NCBI GenBank assembly: GCA_020721325.1
Contig: DYNA01000010.1
Coordinates: 1-50,386 of the forward strand
DNA from: Paludibacter propionicigenes
GTDB taxonomy: Bacteria; Bacteroidota; Bacteroidia; Bacteroidales; JAIFNL01
Direction of reading: 5' to 3'
DNA length: 50,386 nt
Below, piece after piece: positions 2,980 through 48,418 of the stretch. The notes beneath the pieces are model-generated. The model was not told the DNA's origin. It saw nothing but the letters and a program-made list of their open reading frames with translations, and searched no databases. A program made the position numbers and the translations under genes. The stretch's first letter is position 1; each line of letters opens with the position of its first letter.

Positions 2980-5232
2980 ATGAAAAAATTACTATTACTC
3001 GTTGTATCGAATTTGCTTTTTTTGGCGTCTTTTTCGCAAGAATACAATACGATTTTCAAAGAAGATTTTGATGACAATCTGAATAAATGGAAATTATATG
3101 ATTCGCCTTCGGCAAGAACTACCGTAAATACCGGAATTTTTATTTTAGAACACAAACGAAATGACGGTGCATGGTCAAGCACTGTTCCGGTTGATTTAGA
3201 CCCAGCTTCTAATTTTGTTATTGATACAAAAGTTACAAAAGTTTTTGGTGTAAATAATTATGGTTACGGTTTAACTTGGGGCGGAAAAAATTCAGGTAAT
3301 TTGTATGTTTTTTTAATTACTGCAAATGGTTATTTTCAAATTGGAAAAACCGTTAATGGACGTTATGAAAACATTGTAGATTGGACAGAATCTTCGGCTA
3401 TTAATCGAAATAATGCGCAAAATATTCTGCGAATTGAGAAAAATGGAAATCAGATGTTTTTTTCTATCAACGGACGGCGAGTTACTAACCTTGATGCCAT
3501 GCCTTTTATGGGAAAAAATATCGGTTTTTTTGTTAATAAAAACATGAAAATTAGAGCTTCATGGTTGGTTGTAAAATCAGATGAAACTGCGAAAAGCTTT
3601 GAAGTTCAATCGTATCCGCCCGATTTGGTTATTGAAAATTTGGAATTGATTGACCCTTCAAAAAATGGTTCGCTCGATGGAAATGAAGAGGCTCAAATTT
3701 CGTTTAAATTAGTAAATCGCGGACGTGGTAAAGCCTTTGGAATCAATATAAACGCAACTCCTTTGTCTTCTGCTGAGAATTTAACGCTTGGCAAAGTTGA
3801 AATCATTGCAGAACTCAGTTCGCAATCGTTTAGAAACGTAACTATCCCTATTTCAGCCAATTACATGGTTAAGAACTTGGAAAGAAATATTAGAATTGAT
3901 GTTTCTGAATTTTATGGAAACGATGCCGACCCGTCGGTGATTAATTTCTATACTTCGGAATACAGCAAGCCCGATTTAGCGATTAAACAAGTGGCTATCA
4001 ACGATAAAACCGATGAATATCAGCGCGGCGATGCTTATGGAAATGGCAACTCGATTATTGAAGCCGGCGAATCGATTGAAGTTACGGCTTACTTGCAAAA
4101 TTTCGGTCAAGGAAATTCGGAAAATACTCAAGTTGAGTTGATTTTGGAAACCACCGACAAGAACATCACTTTTCCTGATAACGGAAAAATTATTGAAATC
4201 GGGACCATTGCAAGCGGCGATTACAAAGAAATAGCGTTTTATTTTTACACAAGCCGCAGATATACCGTAAAAGATATTCCTATTTTTGTAAAAGTTACAA
4301 GCAGCCATTCGCCTAATAGTGAGCAAATTCCGCTAAATTTGAAATTGGGCGAACGCACCGAAAATATAGTTGATGTGGACATTAAAAAAATTGACACCGA
4401 TAACGATGTCGTTGTAAAACGCATAGAAGGAATTATTGAACCCACTGATGTTGAGCAAGATATACCCGAAACCCGAACCGATGGTTCAAACACGCTTTGC
4501 GTTATTTTGGGTGTAGAAAAGTATAAATATGCACCAAATGTTGATTTTGCTGCCAACGATGCCCGCACTTTTTATCTTTATGCTCAAAAAGTTTTGGGAA
4601 TACCCGAAAAAAATATATTTTTCCGCATAAATGAAAACGCAACTTCAGGCGAATTTGAAAAAGTTTTCTCGGATAATGGTTGGCTTTCGCGCCGAATTGT
4701 AAATGGAGAAACCGACATTATTGTTTATTATGCAGGGCACGGTGCGCCCGATTCCAAAGAAAAAGTGGCGTATTTAATTCCTCACGACATAGACCCAAAT
4801 TACGCCAATACAGGCTATAGCCTCGATAAATTGTACGCTTCGCTTTCAAATTTTAAGGCAAAAAATGTTACCGTATTTCTCGATGCTTGTTTTTCGGGTA
4901 CAACTCGAAACAACGAAGTGCTGCTTGCCGGCGTGCGTGGAATTGTTGTAAAACCCAAAGAATCAGCTACTTTTGCCGATAATTTGATTGCCATTTCGGC
5001 TTCTTCCGACGATGAATTTAGCAGTTCATATCCGGATAAATTTCATGGTCTTTTTACTTATTATTTGCTCAAAGCTCTTAAAGGTGAGGCTTCTAAGGGA
5101 AAGCCACTTGATGTGAAAACCCTGTTTGCTTATCTCGAAAAATATGTTCCCGTGCAAGCCGGTTATTTAGACCGCGACCAACACCCAACTATTCGTGGAA
5201 AAAAAACAGACCGGATTTTAGTAGAATATTAA
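2980..5232 (+). CDS. Secreted caspase family protein (peptidase C14/metacaspase-like) with N-terminal LamG/3-keto-disaccharide-hydrolase-like module and CARDB-like middle region
   Basis: Signal peptide MKKLLLLVVSNLLFLASFSQ; catalytic motifs DIIVYYAGHGAP (His587) and VTVFLDACFSG (Cys637); LIPHDIDP; C-terminal ISASSDDEFSSSYPDKFHGLFTYYLLKALKG. Confidence 0.85.
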   Translation: MKKLLLLVVSNLLFLASFSQEYNTIFKEDFDDNLNKWKLYDSPSARTTVNTGIFILEHKRNDGAWSSTVPVDLDPASNFVIDTKVTKVFGVNNYGYGLTWGGKNSGNLYVFLITANGYFQIGKTVNGRYENIVDWTESSAINRNNAQNILRIEKNGNQMFFSINGRRVTNLDAMPFMGKNIGFFVNKNMKIRASWLVVKSDETAKSFEVQSYPPDLVIENLELIDPSKNGSLDGNEEAQISFKLVNRGRGKAFGININATPLSSAENLTLGKVEIIAELSSQSFRNVTIPISANYMVKNLERNIRIDVSEFYGNDADPSVINFYTSEYSKPDLAIKQVAINDKTDEYQRGDAYGNGNSIIEAGESIEVTAYLQNFGQGNSENTQVELILETTDKNITFPDNGKIIEIGTIASGDYKEIAFYFYTSRRYTVKDIPIFVKVTSSHSPNSEQIPLNLKLGERTENIVDVDIKKIDTDNDVVVKRIEGIIEPTDVEQDIPETRTDGSNTLCVILGVEKYKYAPNVDFAANDARTFYLYAQKVLGIPEKNIFFRINENATSGEFEKVFSDNGWLSRRIVNGETDIIVYYAGHGAPDSKEKVAYLIPHDIDPNYANTGYSLDKLYASLSNFKAKNVTVFLDACFSGTTRNNEVLLAGVRGIVVKPKESATFADNLIAISASSDDEFSSSYPDKFHGLFTYYLLKALKGEASKGKPLDVKTLFAYLEKYVPVQAGYLDRDQHPTIRGKKTDRILVEY

Positions 5233-5323
5233 TTTTATCTCAACATTTGATATAAAAATATTTCAAGTAATTTAATAATTTGACTTATAGACAATGTTTG
5301 AAAACTTATTTAAAAAAAAAATT

Positions 5324-7390
5324 ATGAAAACAAAATTTTTTACCCTTTTTTTTATTATTTTTTTACTTTTTTTTGTAAAAAAAACATTTTCGCAAGAAGA
5401 TGAATTTAATGAATTTAAAAATCAAGTTGAAAAAGATTTCTCTGATTTTGACAAAAAAAACAAGCAAATTTTTAATGATTTTGTAGAAAAAAATGATAAA
5501 GAATTTGCCGATTTTTTGCGTAAAGCATGGAACGATTACGAAGGAAATGAACCCGAAAAACCAAAATTGGGAAACAAACCCGACAAAAAACCGGTAGCCA
5601 AAATAAAAGATGTAAAAATTGATGGACAAGACGAAATAGCTGTTTGTCAGACTGTTGAAGTAATTCCTTTCGCTTTGGGCAGTGCTTTGCCACCCATACA
5701 AAAAGAAGAGAAAGGTGGAAAGAAAAAAGGTACTTTATCGGTCGATTTTTTTGGTTTAGAGCAATCTTTTAGCTTTGATGCTGAACTTTCAAAAACCTTT
5801 AAAAATGGGGAAATTACGCCCGATGTCATTGCCGATTTTTGGGAAAGTGCCTCCAATTGCAATCACTACGATTTAATTAACGATTTGATGGAATTTAAGT
5901 TGCAACAAAAACTTAATGATTGGGCTTATTATCAACTGATTACACAAGTTTCTGAAAAAATTACTTCCTCTAAAAATCACGCAAAATTGATGAAATGGTT
6001 TTTACTAAATAAATCGCGCTACAATACTAAAATCGGTTATAATGCTAATAATGTTTATGTTATGGTTGCCACCGAATTTATGATTTTTGGAAAAAATTAT
6101 TTTTCATTTGATAATACCAATTTTTTTATTTTGGACAATGAAAATATAAAAGCTTTGCGCTCTTACGACGGAAATTATCCTGATGCTCGAAATAAATTAA
6201 ATTTTTTAATCACACAATCGCCTGTTTTAGGCACTGAAATAAAGTCCAGAAGCTTGAATTTGAGCTATTTGAATGGAAAATACGATATAAATTTAAAATA
6301 TAATGTATCGAACATAGATTTTTACAATACCATTCCGCAGCTCGATTTGCCTTTGTATTTTAATGCCAGCAGCTCAAGCGATTTTATTAACTCGTTGGTT
6401 GATAATTTAAAACCTCACATTGAAAGCATGGACGAATTTTCGGCAGTGAGTTTTTTACTCAAATTTGCTCAAACTTCTTTCGATTACAAAACTGACCCTC
6501 AACAATTTGGATATGAAAAATTTTTCTTTGCCGAAGAAACGGTTTTTTATCCCTTTTCCGATTGCGAAGACCGTTCTATATTTTTTGCTACTTTAATATA
6601 CGAACTGCTTAATTTAAAGGTAGTTGGACTTGAATATCCCGGACACGTAGCTACGGCGGTTTGTTTTTCGGAAAACCGAAATGGCGACCATTTATTTTAC
6701 AACGGCGACAAATATATTATTTGCGACCCCACTTTTGTAAACGCACCCGTTGGTATGTGTATGCCACAGTTTGTGAGCGTGGAGGCAAAAGTAATTCCGC
6801 TTAATTCGGTGCATTCGAGCGAAAATTTTTCACAAGAATTGATGACCGTTATTACAAAAGCCGGAGGTAATGCTCAAAAAGTAAAAGTGGAAACCGATAG
6901 CAATGGAAATTCCTTTGTAGTAGGAACTTATGATGCTACTCTTACCTTTTCGGAAAAAATAATTACTGCTCAAAACGACCAATTGAATGCTTTTGTTGCA
7001 AAATTTGATAAAAATAAAAAGCCTATTTGGGTGCAAGCTTTTTCGGGCGATGAAGATTTTGAAAGTAAATTTGTAAAAACAAGCCCCGATGGAAGCACTT
7101 ATGTAGCCGGAAAAATTGGTAAAAACGCTCAATTTGACCAAAAACAAATCCAGTTGGAAAATAATAATTTGAAAGTATTTTTGGCAAAATATGACGAAAA
7201 CGGAAAATTTCAATGGATAAAAACGGCTAATATTCCCAAAGAAGCCTCCGAAAAACACATTGTAGTTAGTCGATTTACTAAAGAAGGAAAAGAGGTTTCT
7301 ACCATGATTTTTGATAAAAACAAAGGATTTGACAATTATGGAATTTCTTTTGCTCAATCCGGTGATATTTTAATTACACTCGATTTGTAG
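5324..7390 (+). CDS. Secreted transglutaminase-like protein with C-terminal SBBP-type beta-propeller repeats
   Basis: Signal peptide MKTKFFTLFFIIFLLFFVKKTFSQ (ATG 5324; ORF track starts at 5294); apparent Cys/His/Asp triad in FSDCEDRS...YPGHVATAV...IICDPTFVNAPVG; repeats KVKVETDSNGNSFVVGTYDATLTF and FVKTSPDGSTYVAGKIGKNAQF. Confidence 0.6.
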   Translation: MKTKFFTLFFIIFLLFFVKKTFSQEDEFNEFKNQVEKDFSDFDKKNKQIFNDFVEKNDKEFADFLRKAWNDYEGNEPEKPKLGNKPDKKPVAKIKDVKIDGQDEIAVCQTVEVIPFALGSALPPIQKEEKGGKKKGTLSVDFFGLEQSFSFDAELSKTFKNGEITPDVIADFWESASNCNHYDLINDLMEFKLQQKLNDWAYYQLITQVSEKITSSKNHAKLMKWFLLNKSRYNTKIGYNANNVYVMVATEFMIFGKNYFSFDNTNFFILDNENIKALRSYDGNYPDARNKLNFLITQSPVLGTEIKSRSLNLSYLNGKYDINLKYNVSNIDFYNTIPQLDLPLYFNASSSSDFINSLVDNLKPHIESMDEFSAVSFLLKFAQTSFDYKTDPQQFGYEKFFFAEETVFYPFSDCEDRSIFFATLIYELLNLKVVGLEYPGHVATAVCFSENRNGDHLFYNGDKYIICDPTFVNAPVGMCMPQFVSVEAKVIPLNSVHSSENFSQELMTVITKAGGNAQKVKVETDSNGNSFVVGTYDATLTFSEKIITAQNDQLNAFVAKFDKNKKPIWVQAFSGDEDFESKFVKTSPDGSTYVAGKIGKNAQFDQKQIQLENNNLKVFLAKYDENGKFQWIKTANIPKEASEKHIVVSRFTKEGKEVSTMIFDKNKGFDNYGISFAQSGDILITLDL

Positions 7391-7548
7391 AAATTTTTAT
7401 TTAATTGAAAATCAATATTTTATAATTCATTTTTTTTAAAATTAAAATTTGTAAAAAAAAAAATAAAAAAAGTGTAGAAATATTTTTGATATTTAAAAAG
7501 TTTTTCCGTATTTTTGGCAAAATAATTCTAAATTTAAAGCAAAGACAA

Positions 7549-8601
7549 ATGCTTGATTATTTAAAAAAACTTGAAAAACTTATTTCTTCGGACAATATGG
7601 AAGAGGCTTTTGAGAACTTTAGAGAAAAGCTCTCTTCTATTTTAATTAAAGCTCCAAATGCCGAAGAAGATGTGAAAGATGTTAAAAATCAGATTATTGT
7701 ACTTTCCGGTAAATTGCACGATTTGAATAAAAAAGTTCGTATGGGTTTGATAGATGCTCACAATGCTTCGGTTTTGAAAGCCCAAATTATTTACAGTTTT
7801 ACCGATTTGTTAGATAATTTGAAAAATTACAATCTTTTGTACGCTTTTTTAGAAGAAAATGACGAAGAAGAAACTTGGTTGAGTGCAGCTAATTACAATT
7901 CGCTGCATACGGTAAAAGAATATTTGGAAAAATACCCCAACGGAAAATACAATGTGGAAGCTAAATACCTCATTTCGGAATTAGAAAAACTCTCTGCACC
8001 AAGAGTAGCGCAACGTTTTCCGCAAGTTGTTACTCAAATTCCGGAAAATATTAAATCGCAAACACCCGAAGATTGGTGGCAAAGTCTTTCACCGCGTTGG
8101 AAGCATATTTTTGCAACAAAAATTAATTTATCCGAAAAACCAAATTTTGAAGATTTGCATAAAATATTTTCAATCAATAAGTTAGATATTCAAGGCAATC
8201 AAGAAATTTTTTCAATCGAACCCTTGAAAAAACTAACAAAATTAAAAACACTCAACATTTCCGACACGCGAATTAATTCGCTCGATGCGCTTAAAGAACT
8301 TTCAAATTTGGAAGTTTTATGGTTTCGATACACATTTGTGAGTAGTTTGGACGCCCTTAAAAATTTAAAGAAAATTCGTGAAATCGATTTTTATAATACA
8401 GAAGTTTTTGACCTTTCGCCCATAGCGGAACTCTCTAATTTAGAGTTTATTAACTGTTCATTAACCAATGTAAATTCGTTGTATCCAATTTACGATATGC
8501 CAAAATTACGAATTTTGAATTGCCAAACTCACTTATTGAGCCTTGAAAATATAGAACAATATAAATTAATGAATCCCAAAGTTCGTGTAAATGAATATTA
8601 A
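7549..8601 (+). CDS. EAD11-like effector-associated domain plus leucine-rich repeat protein (cytosolic)
   Basis: N-terminus MLDYLKKLEKLISSDNMEEAFENF...VKNQIIVLSGKLHDLNKKVRMGLIDAHNASVLKAQIIYSFTDLLDNL resembles effector-associated domain 11; linker ETWLSAANYNSLHTVKEYLEKYPNGKYNVEAKYLI; LRRs LKTLNISDTRINSLDALKELSNLEVL. No signal peptide. ORF track begins at a TTG (7486); ATG at 7549 preferred. Confidence 0.65.
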   Translation: MLDYLKKLEKLISSDNMEEAFENFREKLSSILIKAPNAEEDVKDVKNQIIVLSGKLHDLNKKVRMGLIDAHNASVLKAQIIYSFTDLLDNLKNYNLLYAFLEENDEEETWLSAANYNSLHTVKEYLEKYPNGKYNVEAKYLISELEKLSAPRVAQRFPQVVTQIPENIKSQTPEDWWQSLSPRWKHIFATKINLSEKPNFEDLHKIFSINKLDIQGNQEIFSIEPLKKLTKLKTLNISDTRINSLDALKELSNLEVLWFRYTFVSSLDALKNLKKIREIDFYNTEVFDLSPIAELSNLEFINCSLTNVNSLYPIYDMPKLRILNCQTHLLSLENIEQYKLMNPKVRVNEY

Positions 8602-8774
8602 TTTTTTATTAAAATAAGTCAAACCATTTCAATTTTTTATTTGAATTAAAATGTTAATATATAATTATTTAGATAAGTGAAACTCTAATTTTCAAATGTT
8701 AAACCATAAAAACTTTTTGAATAATTCAATATTAATATGCAATTTTGTAAAAAAATTTAATTAAAATTTATCGT

Positions 8775-9710
8775 ATGAAGACAATTACAAAACTCGTTTT
8801 TTTAGCAGTAAGCCTTTTAATTTTAGGTGGAAATTCTGCATTTTCTCAAACCAATCGCGATTGGTGGAATGGACTTCCGGCTGAATGGAAAGATTATTTT
8901 GAAAGCAAATTTATGAAAGAAAGTCAGCGAGCAGCCGGTGTGGAAATGTCTGACGGTAAGCTCGAAACCATTGTAAATCTTAAAGTTTTGGACTGCTCAG
9001 GTAATAAAGATATTAGAGATTTGAAACCGCTTTCGCAGTTAAAAGACCTCGAAATTTTGGACATTTCAAACACAGGAGTTGCCGATTTAAGTGGTTTAAA
9101 AAATGTTCCAAACCTAAAAGAATTGGATTGTTCAAACAGCGAAATGATTGAAGACCTTACGCCACTCAAAAACATGCGCCGTTTGGAAAAATTAATTTGT
9201 TACAATACTTCCGTTTCCAATCTTGAGCCGCTTAAATATTTGTCGCTCAAAGAATTAAATGTTGCTCTTACGTTTATTGCCGACAATTCACTTTCGGTTT
9301 TGGAAGGCATGTTGAGTTTGCAAAAATTGGATATTTCGCAAAACGAATTGATTCGTAATTTGGGTTTTATGCACAATTTGGATAACTTAACCGACTTAAA
9401 TTGCAGCAAATCGCCAGTGGTTAGCGTCGATTCTATTGCAGTTATTGATAATTTGGAACACCTCGACATTTCAAATACCGATATTAAAGGTATAAAACCC
9501 CTTATTGATGTAAAAACTTTAATTAGCATTGATATTTCCGGTACTGAAATCAAAAATATTGATGCACTTTACGCAAGTACTCGTTTGAAAAATTTAAAAG
9601 CAATTGATTTAAAAATTGATGACGTTACTTATGCCCAAAAATTAAAAGAAAGTATAAAAACTTTTAAAGAAAAAAGACCCGATTGCATTGTCGATTTGAA
9701 TATAAAATAA
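8775..9710 (+). CDS. Secreted leucine-rich repeat protein
   Basis: Signal peptide MKTITKLVFLAVSLLILGGNSAFSQ; repeats LKVLDCSGNKDIRDLKPLSQLKDLEILDISNTGVADLSGLKNVPNLKELDCS... Confidence 0.8.
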   Translation: MKTITKLVFLAVSLLILGGNSAFSQTNRDWWNGLPAEWKDYFESKFMKESQRAAGVEMSDGKLETIVNLKVLDCSGNKDIRDLKPLSQLKDLEILDISNTGVADLSGLKNVPNLKELDCSNSEMIEDLTPLKNMRRLEKLICYNTSVSNLEPLKYLSLKELNVALTFIADNSLSVLEGMLSLQKLDISQNELIRNLGFMHNLDNLTDLNCSKSPVVSVDSIAVIDNLEHLDISNTDIKGIKPLIDVKTLISIDISGTEIKNIDALYASTRLKNLKAIDLKIDDVTYAQKLKESIKTFKEKRPDCIVDLNIK

Positions 9711-9832
9711 ATTTTAAAACAAGGAAATTTGAAAATGAGGAAATTTGAAAATTATCAAATTTTCTCATTTTTTTTTTTTTTTCAAATTTCTAAATTTTAC
9801 CATTTCCAAATTTTCATTTTTTTCATTTCTAA

Positions 9833-9843
9833 AGTTCAAAATT
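9833..9843. repeat. Left 11-bp direct repeat (putative target site duplication) AGTTCAAAATT
   Basis: Identical to 10088-10098 and exactly abuts the terminal inverted repeat. Confidence 0.6.
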
Positions 9844-10087
9844 GGTCTGTTTATTTTGCGCGAAAAATAAATTTTGCTTTTCCCTCATGTTTTTATGAAC
9901 ATTCCATAAGGGAATAAGGTTTTATTTTTGCTTCATTATCCTTTTTTACTAAGGGAATAAGGTTGATTTTCAAAACCTTATTCCCTTAGTAATAAAAATA
10001 AAACTCGCTGCCTCCCTTATTCCCTTTTTTTTTTTGAGAAAAATGGAGGGATTTGTTTTAAATTTTTTTTAACAAAATAAATAGACC
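9844..10087. mobile_element. MITE-like non-coding palindromic element, 244 bp
   Basis: TIRs GGTCTGTTTATTTTG (9844-9858) and CAAAATAAATAGACC (10073-10087), 14/15 matched; flanked by perfect 11-bp direct repeats; internal symmetric copies of AAGGGAATAAGG at 9908-9919(+), 9951-9962(+), 9976-9987(-), 10015-10026(-). Confidence 0.65.
9946..9992. repeat. Perfect 19-bp inverted repeat at the centre of the element
   Basis: TTACTAAGGGAATAAGGTT - gattttcaa - AACCTTATTCCCTTAGTAA. Confidence 0.85.
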
Positions 10088-10098
10088 AGTTCAAAATT
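10088..10098. repeat. Right 11-bp direct repeat (putative target site duplication) AGTTCAAAATT
   Basis: Identical to 9833-9843. Confidence 0.6.
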
Positions 10099-10168
10099 CC
10101 CAAATTCTCCCATTTTCAAATTCCTAAATCCTAAAATCCAAATCCTAAAACCCAATTTTATGTCTTTT

Positions 10169-10184
10169 TGTCAGTTTACTGACA
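10169..10184 (+). promoter_or_regulatory. Palindromic operator-like site TGTCAGT-TT-ACTGACA upstream of dnaK
   Basis: Perfect 7-bp inverted repeat in the dnaK upstream region. Confidence 0.45.
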
Positions 10185-10245
10185 CCAAATTTTTTTTTTT
10201 TGAATAAAAAATGACAAAATTTCTATAAAAAAGCCTTTCTTTCAC

Positions 10246-10263
10246 TTGGCATAATGATTGACA
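10246..10263 (+). promoter_or_regulatory. Candidate sigma-54-like promoter of dnaK
   Basis: TTGGCATAATGATTGACA has GG-N10-GA, one base from the GG-N10-GC sigma-54 core. Confidence 0.3.
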
Positions 10264-10383
10264 AAACATAAGCAAATAAAATAGTATTTTTTTAAAAAAA
10301 TTGAAAAAAGAAAAAACAAAATATTAACAAACGATAAGAATGTTTTTTTTAACAAAATTATCATTTTTAAATAGAAATTCATT

Positions 10384-45779: not shown

Positions 45780-47084
45780 ATGAAATCGTTTGTTTTAGTT
45801 AATCTTTTTATTTTATTGTTTTTATCTCTTTTTTCGCAAGAAAATGTTTATTTTAGAGATGATTTTGGTGATAATACCTACAAATGGGAATACGATCCTA
45901 ATAGGCAACTGAACGCTTATATTGAAGATAGTTGTCTGTATATCAATAATTTAAGTTCTATCGAAGCACCTGCTCGTTATGTTAGAAATCTATTTCTATG
46001 CAACGATAGTAATTTTGTTATCGAAACCAAGCTTGCTTTTTTAAATTATGATGTTGAGCAAACTGCCGGATTAATTTGGCACAGCCGCGATAATCATAAT
46101 GGTTTTTATTTTCAAATTACAAATACCGGAAAAGTACGTATTTGGGGAAATAAACACAATTTAAGTTTAGATTATTTAGCTTGGACTGATTTTCCAGCCT
46201 TTAAAAATGTCGATGGACTTGTTTTAAGAATTGAAAAAAATGCCCAAAATATGAATTTTTTTGTAAATAATATTTTGGTATTATCATCGCCTTACAGAGG
46301 GCAATACGGTTATGAAATGGGTTTTACAATCGGAAAATTTGCCGATATAAAAATTGATTATATCGAAGTGGTGCACCCGCCAATTAAAGAATCGGATAAA
46401 AAAATTGCCGAAAAATTAAAACCCGATGATTTATTTTGGCTTATACAAGAAGAAAAATATAAACAACAGATTTCAATTTTTGGAAAGGTTTTTGATTTGA
46501 ATACTGGTGGAGTTTTACGCAGTGCTTCCGTTTTTGTTCTCGATACTCTTGGTAACGAATTAATGACCACTCAAACCAATGAAATGGGTGAATTTAGTGT
46601 TTTAACAAAGTTTGCCGAGCGTATTTTAATTAAATCAAAGACAAATAATTACCTGTCTAATGCACAAGAGTTTAATTTTTCAATTAATGATGAAAGTTTT
46701 GAACGAAAATTTGATTTTCATTTGCAAAAAATTGAAGTTGGGAAGACAATTGTTTTAAAAAATGTTCTTTTTCCTCAAGGAAAATCCGAATTATTAATCG
46801 AATCTTATTTTGAATTGAATAAACTTGTTGATATGATGAAAGAAAATCCAAATATGGAAATTGAACTTTCGGGGCATACCGATAATAGTGGAAGTGCTGA
46901 AAAAAATTACATTCTCTCAGAAGAACGAGTTGAATCGGTTAAGCAATATCTTGTTAATAAAGGAATTAGCTTGAGTAGAATAACTGGAAAGGGTTATGGT
47001 GGCGATTTTCCGGTAACAAGTAACGATAACGATTTGACAAGGCACTTAAATCGGAGAGTTGAGTTCAAAATAGTCAAGAATTAG
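45780..47084 (+). CDS. OmpA family protein with N-terminal LamG-like module
   Basis: OmpA C-terminal: MEIELSGHTDNSGSAEKNYILSEERVESVKQYLVNKGISLSRITGKGYGG...NRRVEFKIVKN; N-terminal YFRDDFGDNTYKWEY...SNFVIETKLAF. Confidence 0.88.
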   Translation: MKSFVLVNLFILLFLSLFSQENVYFRDDFGDNTYKWEYDPNRQLNAYIEDSCLYINNLSSIEAPARYVRNLFLCNDSNFVIETKLAFLNYDVEQTAGLIWHSRDNHNGFYFQITNTGKVRIWGNKHNLSLDYLAWTDFPAFKNVDGLVLRIEKNAQNMNFFVNNILVLSSPYRGQYGYEMGFTIGKFADIKIDYIEVVHPPIKESDKKIAEKLKPDDLFWLIQEEKYKQQISIFGKVFDLNTGGVLRSASVFVLDTLGNELMTTQTNEMGEFSVLTKFAERILIKSKTNNYLSNAQEFNFSINDESFERKFDFHLQKIEVGKTIVLKNVLFPQGKSELLIESYFELNKLVDMMKENPNMEIELSGHTDNSGSAEKNYILSEERVESVKQYLVNKGISLSRITGKGYGGDFPVTSNDNDLTRHLNRRVEFKIVKN

Positions 47085-47113: not shown

Positions 47114-48418
47114 ATGTATAAAAATATATTGTTTTTTTTATTTTTATTAAATTGTAATTTTATTTTTTCACAAGAAAATATTTATTTGCGCGACGATTTT
47201 TCATCGAATAAATTTAACTGGAAGTTGGAGCAAACACCCGATTTTTCTGCAAAAATTGAAAATGGGAATTTGAATGTAGAAAATAAAACTACCAGTTCGC
47301 AAATGGTTCGATTTGTTCAAAATATGTTTATGTACAACGATAGCGATTTTGTGATAGAAGCAAAATTAAAATTTCAAAAGTCTGTAAATGAGCAAATTGG
47401 AGGTGTTATTTGGCACAGTTTAGACGAAAACAATGGTTTTTATTTTGAAGTTTCATCTTTAGGAAAAGCTCGAGTTTGGGCAAATAAAAATGGAGGAGTT
47501 TTTAATTTAAAAGAATGGGAAGAATTTGAAGAATTGAAAAATGCCGAAGAATTTATTTTAAAAATTGATAGAAAAGGAATTTATATGAATCTTTTTGTAA
47601 ATAACGTTTTAGTTTACCCCTCAAAATATCGCGGGCAATTTGCCTATCAATTAGGTTTTGTAATCGGAAAGCAATCTGCATTATCGGTTGATTATCTGTT
47701 GGTTAAGCACCCAAAAGTGGACATTAATGATGAAAAAACTGCCGAAAAAATAGCTAAAGACGATTTATTTTGGCTTTTAAATGACGATGTTTCTTTTAAA
47801 GCTCAAATTCTGGGTGATGTTAAAAATTTGCTTGATAGTCAAATCATAAAGCAAGCTAAAATTTCATTAACCGATGTAGATGGAAATACCTTAAAATTTA
47901 TAAATAAATCTTCCGAGCAAGGGCATTTTTCCTTTGATGTGGATACGAAAAATCAATACATTTTGAAAGTTAAAGCTCCAAATTTTATTACCGAAAATAT
48001 TATTTTAGATTTAAACGTAGAAGAGAATGATTTTAAAATTGAGAAATCTGTTTTTTTAAATCCGGTGGAATTGGGAAAAACGATTCGGCTCGAAAATGTA
48101 TTTTTTGAACGTGGAGAAGCCATTTTATTGCGCAATTCGTATAAAGAATTAGATAAACTTGCCGAATTTATGCAAGAAAATCAAAAAATTGAGATTGAAT
48201 TGAGCGGGCATACCGATAATTGGGGAAATGCCGCATTAAATTTACAACTTTCGCAAGATAGAGTGCAAAAAGTGAAAGAGTATTTGGTTGAAAAAGGTAT
48301 AAATGAAGCCCGAATTACCGGAAAAGGTTATGGAGGCACTAAACCCATAGCCGATAATAACTCTGAACTTACTCGAAAATTAAATAGGCGTGTAGAGTTT
48401 AAAATTGTTAAAATGTAA
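47114..48418 (+). CDS. OmpA family protein with N-terminal LamG-like module (tandem paralogue)
   Basis: Same architecture and same length (434 aa) as the preceding gene; IEIELSGHTDNWGNAALNLQLSQDRVQKVKEYLVEKGINEARITGKGYGG. Confidence 0.88.
   Translation: MYKNILFFLFLLNCNFIFSQENIYLRDDFSSNKFNWKLEQTPDFSAKIENGNLNVENKTTSSQMVRFVQNMFMYNDSDFVIEAKLKFQKSVNEQIGGVIWHSLDENNGFYFEVSSLGKARVWANKNGGVFNLKEWEEFEELKNAEEFILKIDRKGIYMNLFVNNVLVYPSKYRGQFAYQLGFVIGKQSALSVDYLLVKHPKVDINDEKTAEKIAKDDLFWLLNDDVSFKAQILGDVKNLLDSQIIKQAKISLTDVDGNTLKFINKSSEQGHFSFDVDTKNQYILKVKAPNFITENIILDLNVEENDFKIEKSVFLNPVELGKTIRLENVFFERGEAILLRNSYKELDKLAEFMQENQKIEIELSGHTDNWGNAALNLQLSQDRVQKVKEYLVEKGINEARITGKGYGGTKPIADNNSELTRKLNRRVEFKIVKM

What the first reader, a model, noticed from the sequence alone, without database searches (positions are those of the whole stretch)
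2980..9710. Candidate undescribed caspase / transglutaminase / EAD11-LRR / LRR gene cluster
Four consecutive same-strand genes combine a caspase-fold protease, a second protein with an apparent transglutaminase Cys-His-Asp triad, an effector-associated-domain (EAD11-like) LRR protein and a second LRR protein. EADs are established adaptor modules in bacterial conflict systems and are often linked to caspase-like or trypsin-like effectors. LRRs are typical sensor or interaction modules. Three of the four products carry signal peptides while the EAD-LRR protein does not, so a simple cytosolic EAD-caspase immunity model does not fit. A cross-envelope sensing, surface-processing or secreted effector system is possible. 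That the four genes form one system is inference from adjacency.
Basis: partly seen in the sequence, partly recalled or inferred. Interest (0 to 1): 0.75.

Follow-up and report, generated by a model that had tools for sequence, protein, structure and literature searches.

The report
Envelope caspase–transglutaminase pair beside EAD11-LRR
Two neighbouring secreted enzymes, one with a caspase fold and one with a transglutaminase-like fold, belong to a recurrent bacterial cell-envelope gene module that I could not find described, while the two leucine-rich-repeat genes next to them are most likely unrelated neighbours and not part of a four-gene immune system.

Summary
The four same-strand genes are there, and Pfam or structure supports the domain calls: caspase C14 with CARDB (A), EAD11 with LRR (C) and LRR (D). 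B matches no Pfam or NCBIfam model, but Cys414, His441 and Asp468 are invariant in 55 relatives and AlphaFold2 (pLDDT 89) gives a transglutaminase/LapG-like core.

"One four-gene system" is not supported. A–B–C–D is fixed only within one genus, where dnaK and two further genes share the synteny. C has its own conserved Bacteroidota-type promoter in the B–C gap. Full-length C was found only in the genus. D homologues elsewhere stand alone.

A–B is more than chance. B is a large uncurated family in several phyla, usually within 8 kb of LPP20-like lipoprotein genes. Outside the genus, 9 of 68 sampled B loci (7 families) have a caspase within 8 kb (about 0.7 expected). Most of these caspases come with a DUF4384-like gene. 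One genome has LPP20-like–DUF4384–caspase–B contiguous. The window's genome has the missing pair elsewhere, inside a six-gene secreted operon.

Best reading: A and B are the enzymes of a proteolytic envelope module, working somewhat like LapG. The LRR genes are bystanders or a separate EAD11 adaptor. Substrate and activity are inferred.

The parts
2980..5232 (+). Gene A: secreted caspase-fold protease. Signal peptide, ~200-aa ConA/LamG-like domain, CARDB/Ig-like domains (~214-440), C14 caspase domain (506-740, His587/Cys637)
   Evidence: C14 52.1 bits, CARDB; His/Cys invariant in 9 caspases; Foldseek: metacaspase 9, 8a53, TMt 0.60; overall AF2 model weak, pLDDT 59. The ConA-like label for the N-terminal domain is inference; the domain is shared with two OmpA-type proteins of the window
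5324..7390 (+). Gene B: secreted transglutaminase-like protein. Signal peptide, long N-terminal helix, beta domain, papain/TG-like core (Cys414 at 6563, His441 at 6644, Asp468 at 6725), shortened SBBP-type beta-propeller C-terminus
   Evidence: triad invariant in 55 homologues; AF2 pLDDT 89.4; Foldseek: LapG 4fgo prob 0.95, 3isr prob 0.89-0.92, PNGase 2f4o prob 0.91; DUF553/Transglut_core and SBBP weak hits in other members; C-terminus like the CylK propeller, E 3.5e-23
7486..7516 (+). Conserved Bacteroidota-type promoter (TTG-N20-TATTTTTG) in the B-C gap, giving C its own transcription start
   Evidence: AAAGTTTTTCCGTATTTTTG identical in the window, G001 and G002 within an otherwise diverged spacer; the same pattern is not found in the A-B or C-D gaps
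7549..8601 (+). Gene C: cytosolic EAD11 (residues 5-91) - short linker repeat - LRR protein; conserved in the genus only; judged a neighbour, not part of the A-B module
   Evidence: EAD11 47.3 bits over cut-off 26; 6 EAD11 copies over cut-off in own genome; full-length match only in the own genome and G001 among 99 order genomes; orthologues in G001 and G002
8775..9710 (+). Gene D: secreted LRR protein whose LRR region is homologous to that of C (WW..L...W cap); standalone in other families; judged a neighbour
   Evidence: C/D similarity 33-34% over ~145-170 aa; 33-40% homologues in 8 other families, no caspase, B or EAD11 gene nearby

Best explanation
A and B are two enzymes exported across the inner membrane and probably made from one transcript. 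They belong to a modular cell-envelope gene set that typically also contains an LPP20-like lipoprotein, a DUF4384-like protein and sometimes PEGA-repeat proteins. Proposed working: B is a periplasmic or outer-membrane-attached cysteine protease of the transglutaminase-like superfamily, comparable in kind to LapG, that processes an envelope or surface protein. A is a caspase-type protease whose variable N-terminal binding domains select its target; it acts in the same compartment on B, on the LPP20-like lipoprotein or on the same surface substrate. In this genus the module is split: A-B lies here, and the LPP20-like/DUF4384 pair lies in a six-gene secreted operon elsewhere in the genome. C (cytosolic EAD11-LRR, own promoter) and D (secreted LRR) are neighbours that became fixed in one genus. 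C more likely works with one of the other EAD11 proteins encoded in the genome. Shown: domains, invariant catalytic residues, fold of B, recurrent linkage. Inferred: activity, location, substrate, order of action.
For: B homologues: 68 of 295 genomes of the order, 40 of 297 of the phylum, and at least 586 confirmed encoding stretches in the species-genome collection, with record titles in Bacteroidota, Cloacimonadota, KSB1, Calditrichia, Neomarinimicrobiota and Gammaproteobacteria. Linkage: in 68 loci outside the genus, LPP20-like gene within 8 kb in 38, PEGA in 15, DUF4384-like in 10, caspase in 9. Caspase background 187 C14 matches in 99 genomes gives 0.67 expected; P(>=9) about 4e-8, still 4e-4 if B genomes carried 6 caspases each. 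A second collection gives 42 of 79 with LPP20-like and 10 of 79 with caspase, including KSB1 loci with the same CARDB-caspase architecture. Contiguous LPP20-like-DUF4384-caspase-B in L143. Own genome: LPP20-like and DUF4384-like pair at C90, next to the Tex-235aa pair that in G001 lies directly upstream of A-B. Triad invariant; AF2 plus Foldseek TG/LapG-like. A-B gap without promoter, B-C gap with a conserved one.
Against: Most B loci (59 of 68; 69 of 79) have no caspase nearby, so a caspase is optional. In Gammaproteobacteria and Cloacimonadota examples B sits among housekeeping genes, with only an LPP20-like gene or none. Foldseek E-values for the TG core are weak (0.05-0.2) because the query has several domains; no Pfam TG model reaches its cut-off on the window protein. 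Loci in one family are not independent (9 caspase loci, 7 families). Cellular location was not computed. No substrate is known.
Confidence: 0.55

Rival explanations
1. All four genes form one cross-envelope system: periplasmic LRR (D) and cytosolic EAD11-LRR (C) sense a signal on both sides of the inner membrane and control the secreted caspase and transglutaminase-like enzymes.
For: Fixed order in three species of the genus. C and D share a homologous LRR module. Caspases of the module elsewhere carry exchangeable recognition domains, including BspA-type LRRs in L143 and WD40 in L187.
Against: The same synteny block includes dnaK, an OMP and a membrane protein, so same-genus order carries little information. 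No LRR or EAD11 neighbour in 147 other B loci. D homologues elsewhere stand alone. Own promoter before C.
Confidence: 0.1
2. Cytosolic EAD-caspase immunity: C recruits caspase A through EAD11 as in the EAD conflict systems.
For: EAD11 is genuine. EADs recruit caspase-like and other effectors through homotypic contacts (PMC7159879, PMC8195603).
Against: A carries no EAD and starts with a signal peptide, so the two would lie on opposite sides of the inner membrane. Other EAD11 proteins of the genome are fused to what look like Roco GTPase, LRR-TIR, NTPase-TPR, CHAT-like and TIR-like domains (read by eye from the translations) and are better candidate partners.
Confidence: 0.03
3. A and B are adjacent by chance or by general clustering of envelope genes, and do not act together.
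For: Caspase is absent at most B loci. Envelope and secreted-protein genes in Bacteroidota can cluster without shared function (general knowledge).
Against: 13-fold enrichment across 7 families and recurrence in other phyla. The DUF4384-like gene occurs at 7 of the 9 caspase-positive loci outside the genus. Conserved A-B adjacency without an internal promoter.
Confidence: 0.3

Closest known systems
LapG / bacterial transglutaminase-like cysteine proteases (BTLCP)
   Same: Secreted, TG-like Cys-His-Asp enzyme; Foldseek hit to LapG 4fgo (prob 0.95, TMt 0.47); LapG cleaves adhesins from the outer membrane (PMC3032545, PMC4694147, abstracts)
   Different: No sequence match to a curated family; extra N-terminal helix, beta domain and SBBP propeller; no LapD-type receptor or LapA-type adhesin was recognised at the loci looked at; LPP20-like lipoprotein is the usual partner
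Bacterial caspase homologues (orthocaspases/metacaspases, MEROPS C14)
   Same: His587/Cys637 dyad and fold; DUF4384 is also mentioned with cyanobacterial and other bacterial caspase homologues (PMC7475262, PMC6426788, found by search, not read in full)
   Different: Apparently exported, with CARDB and a ConA-like domain, and linked to a TG-like gene; DUF4384-like part encoded separately
EAD conflict systems (EACC1, VMAP ternary systems; Kaur et al. 2020, 2021)
   Same: C has a curated EAD11 domain and the genome holds several EAD11 copies
   Different: Caspase A has no EAD and a signal peptide; A matches the EACC1-type caspase model well below cut-off (62.5 versus 140 bits)

Membership tests
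Caspase / Peptidase_C14 | C14 domain with catalytic His and Cys | tested here: met
   Pfam 52.1 bits over 21.4; His587 and Cys637 invariant in 9 sequences
EACC1-type caspase (NCBIfam NF047832) | Score above curated cut-off, EAD fusion or partner | tested here: not met
   62.5 versus cut-off 140 bits; no EAD in A
Transglutaminase-like (papain-fold) superfamily | Cys at helix N-terminus, His and Asp on following strands, TG core fold | tested here: met
   Triad invariant in 55; AF2 places C414 at start of helix 414-429, H441 at start of strand 441-447, D468 after strand 462-467; Foldseek 3isr, LapG, PNGase prob about 0.9-0.95 but E 0.05-0.2
Transglutaminase-like (papain-fold) superfamily | Curated TG profile above cut-off | tested here: not met
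   No Pfam or NCBIfam hit for the window protein; weak DUF553/Transglut_core hits in 8 and 4 of 55 relatives
LapG/BTLCP | Proteolytic cleavage of a large adhesin under LapD control | not testable with these tools
   No LapD or large adhesin recognised at the loci; no assay possible
EAD11 | Pfam PF19964 above cut-off | tested here: met
   47.3 bits over 26
EAD conflict system | EAD copies linked to NTPase core and effectors in the same locus | tested here: not met
   No second EAD in the window; other EAD11 copies lie on other contigs, so a partner in trans is not excluded
LPP20-like / DUF4384 / caspase / B module | LPP20-like and DUF4384-like genes beside B and a caspase | tested here: inconclusive
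   Absent beside A-B in the window; present elsewhere in the same genome at C90 in a six-gene operon; contiguous in L143

The most novel reading that the evidence does not exclude
B defines a widespread uncurated family of secreted transglutaminase-like proteases. Together with LPP20-like lipoproteins and a caspase whose recognition domain is swapped from locus to locus (CARDB, BspA-LRR, WD40), it forms a two-protease cascade in the bacterial envelope: caspase-triggered surface proteolysis, not cytosolic cell death.
Probability: 0.25. Interest if true: 0.7.

Novelty: new variant of a known kind. Interest (0 to 1): 0.42.

Why it matters
Bacterial caspases are mostly discussed as cytosolic death or immunity effectors. 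A recurrent exported caspase paired with a transglutaminase-like enzyme and LPP20-like lipoproteins would point to regulated proteolysis in the envelope. The B family (at least 586 encoding stretches in species genomes, several phyla, invariant triad, no curated model) is a concrete target for naming and for biochemistry. Equally useful, the neighbourhood test shows that the EAD11-LRR and LRR genes need not be explained by the caspase.

Tried and rejected
Four-gene system: rejected by neighbourhoods and the promoter. PADLOC defence models: only a generic caspase hit for A, nothing for B, C or D. Curated EACC1 caspase: below cut-off. PDB sequence search for B alone: no relative; with the profile only the CylK propeller matched the C-terminus. 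PDB sequence search for A: none. AF2 of A gave a poor whole-protein model (9 sequences, pLDDT 59); only its caspase region is used. EAD11 of C compared with 6 other EAD11 copies of the genome: 18-30% identity, nearest the LRR-TIR one, too short to name a partner. Literature: no paper joins LPP20, caspase and transglutaminase in this sense; 'EAD11' gives no relevant paper.

Full report
What is in the sequence. Four same-strand ORFs lie at 2980-9710. Pfam confirms a caspase domain and CARDB in A, EAD11 and LRRs in C, and LRRs in D; B has no Pfam match and none of the four is a curated defence protein apart from a generic caspase hit for A. A, B and D have signal-peptide-like starts; C does not (read by eye; no predictor was available). 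The window lies in a draft genome of 254 contigs.

What B is. B is conserved full length across families at 26-38% identity. In 55 homologues from several phyla Cys414, His441, Asp468 and the surrounding DCEDR motif are invariant or nearly so. AlphaFold2 with that alignment gives mean pLDDT 89.4. Cys414 is at the start of a helix and His441 and Asp468 are on or beside the following strands, the layout of transglutaminase-like papain folds. Foldseek lists 3isr (putative cysteine protease), LapG (4fgo, TMt 0.47) and PNGase at probability 0.84-0.95, with weak E-values because the query has several domains. A few relatives hit DUF553/Transglut_core or SBBP weakly, and the C-terminal part matches the CylK propeller. 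In many homologues the protein is about 870-900 aa; the window's copy has a shortened propeller.

What A is. A has a C14 domain with an invariant His/Cys dyad and a fold hit to metacaspase 9, preceded by CARDB-like domains and an N-terminal ~200-aa domain that two OmpA-family proteins of the same window share. Its EACC1-type caspase score is far below the curated cut-off.

Neighbourhood test. In the two other genomes of the genus, A-B-C-D is conserved, but so are dnaK and the two genes after it, so this says little about function. Across 68 B loci outside the genus, an LPP20-like lipoprotein gene lies within 8 kb in 38, PEGA in 15, DUF4384-like in 10 and a caspase in 9, and no LRR/EAD11 relative of C or D in any. 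With 187 C14 matches in 99 genomes of the order, 0.67 caspases are expected by chance; 9 observed gives P about 4e-8 and 4e-4 under a threefold pessimistic rate. Nine loci fall in seven families, so the true significance is lower than the Poisson value. A separate collection of species genomes gives 42 of 79 with the LPP20-like gene and 10 of 79 with a caspase; at least five loci occur in both sets. The caspases carry different accessory domains: CARDB, BspA-type LRR or WD40 in front, or Fib_succ_major behind.

The missing partners. The window's genome has one LPP20-like and one matching DUF4384-like gene, side by side at contig C90 in a six-gene operon that also has a DUF6175 protein. They are 29-31% identical to the pair that in L143 stands directly before caspase and B. 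In the window's genome the C90 operon is followed by a Tex-type gene and a 235-aa gene; in G001 those two genes (81% and 62% identical) stand directly upstream of A-B. This suggests that the two halves were once close, though in G001 another gene precedes Tex, so the history is not proven.

C and D. C's full-length homologues were found only in the genus. Its EAD11 domain is one of eight EAD11 matches in the genome, six over the cut-off; by eye, the others are joined to a Roco-type GTPase, LRR-TIR, NTPase-TPR, CHAT-like and TIR-like proteins. The B-C spacer holds a TTG-N20-TAnnTTTG promoter whose core is identical in three species inside a diverged spacer; the pattern is absent from the A-B and C-D gaps. 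D has 33-40% homologues in eight other families, none near a caspase or B. EADs recruit effectors by homotypic contacts (PMC7159879, PMC8195603), but A has no EAD and is probably exported, so a direct EAD-caspase partnership does not fit.

Mechanism. Shown: domains, triads, fold, linkage of B with LPP20-like genes and, less often, with a caspase. Inferred: both enzymes act in the periplasm or at the surface; B resembles LapG, which cleaves adhesins from the outer membrane (PMC3032545, PMC4694147); A may activate B or act on the same substrate. B can evidently also act without a caspase nearby, since most B loci lack one.

Novelty. The pieces are known kinds. The B family has no curated model in Pfam or NCBIfam and I found no paper describing the caspase/TG/LPP20 linkage in the held library; absence there is not proof. 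I rate it a new variant of a known kind with moderate interest.

Noticed in passing
window 45780-47084 and 47114-48418: Two tandem OmpA-family proteins share the N-terminal ~200-aa domain of caspase A (26-27% identity, E 2e-11 and 1e-9)
   Followed up: partly
L143:5189-10843: Contiguous LPP20-like, DUF4384-like, BspA-LRR-caspase fusion and B on one strand in another family
   Followed up: yes
L262:8506-16816 (own genome, contig C90): Six-gene secreted operon with a DUF6175 protein, LPP20-like and DUF4384-like genes; possible other half of the module
   Followed up: partly
L006/L008 (own genome, contig C48): Adjacent genes in which EAD11-type domains precede what look like CHAT and TIR domains: a likely EAD11 conflict system
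   Followed up: no
L187:1279-4812: WD40-repeat caspase of 1177 aa near B and an LPP20-like gene
   Followed up: no
window 9711-10383: Long A+T-rich spacer between D and dnaK containing a repeated 'aagggaataaggtt' motif and an inverted repeat, much longer than in the sister species
   Followed up: no
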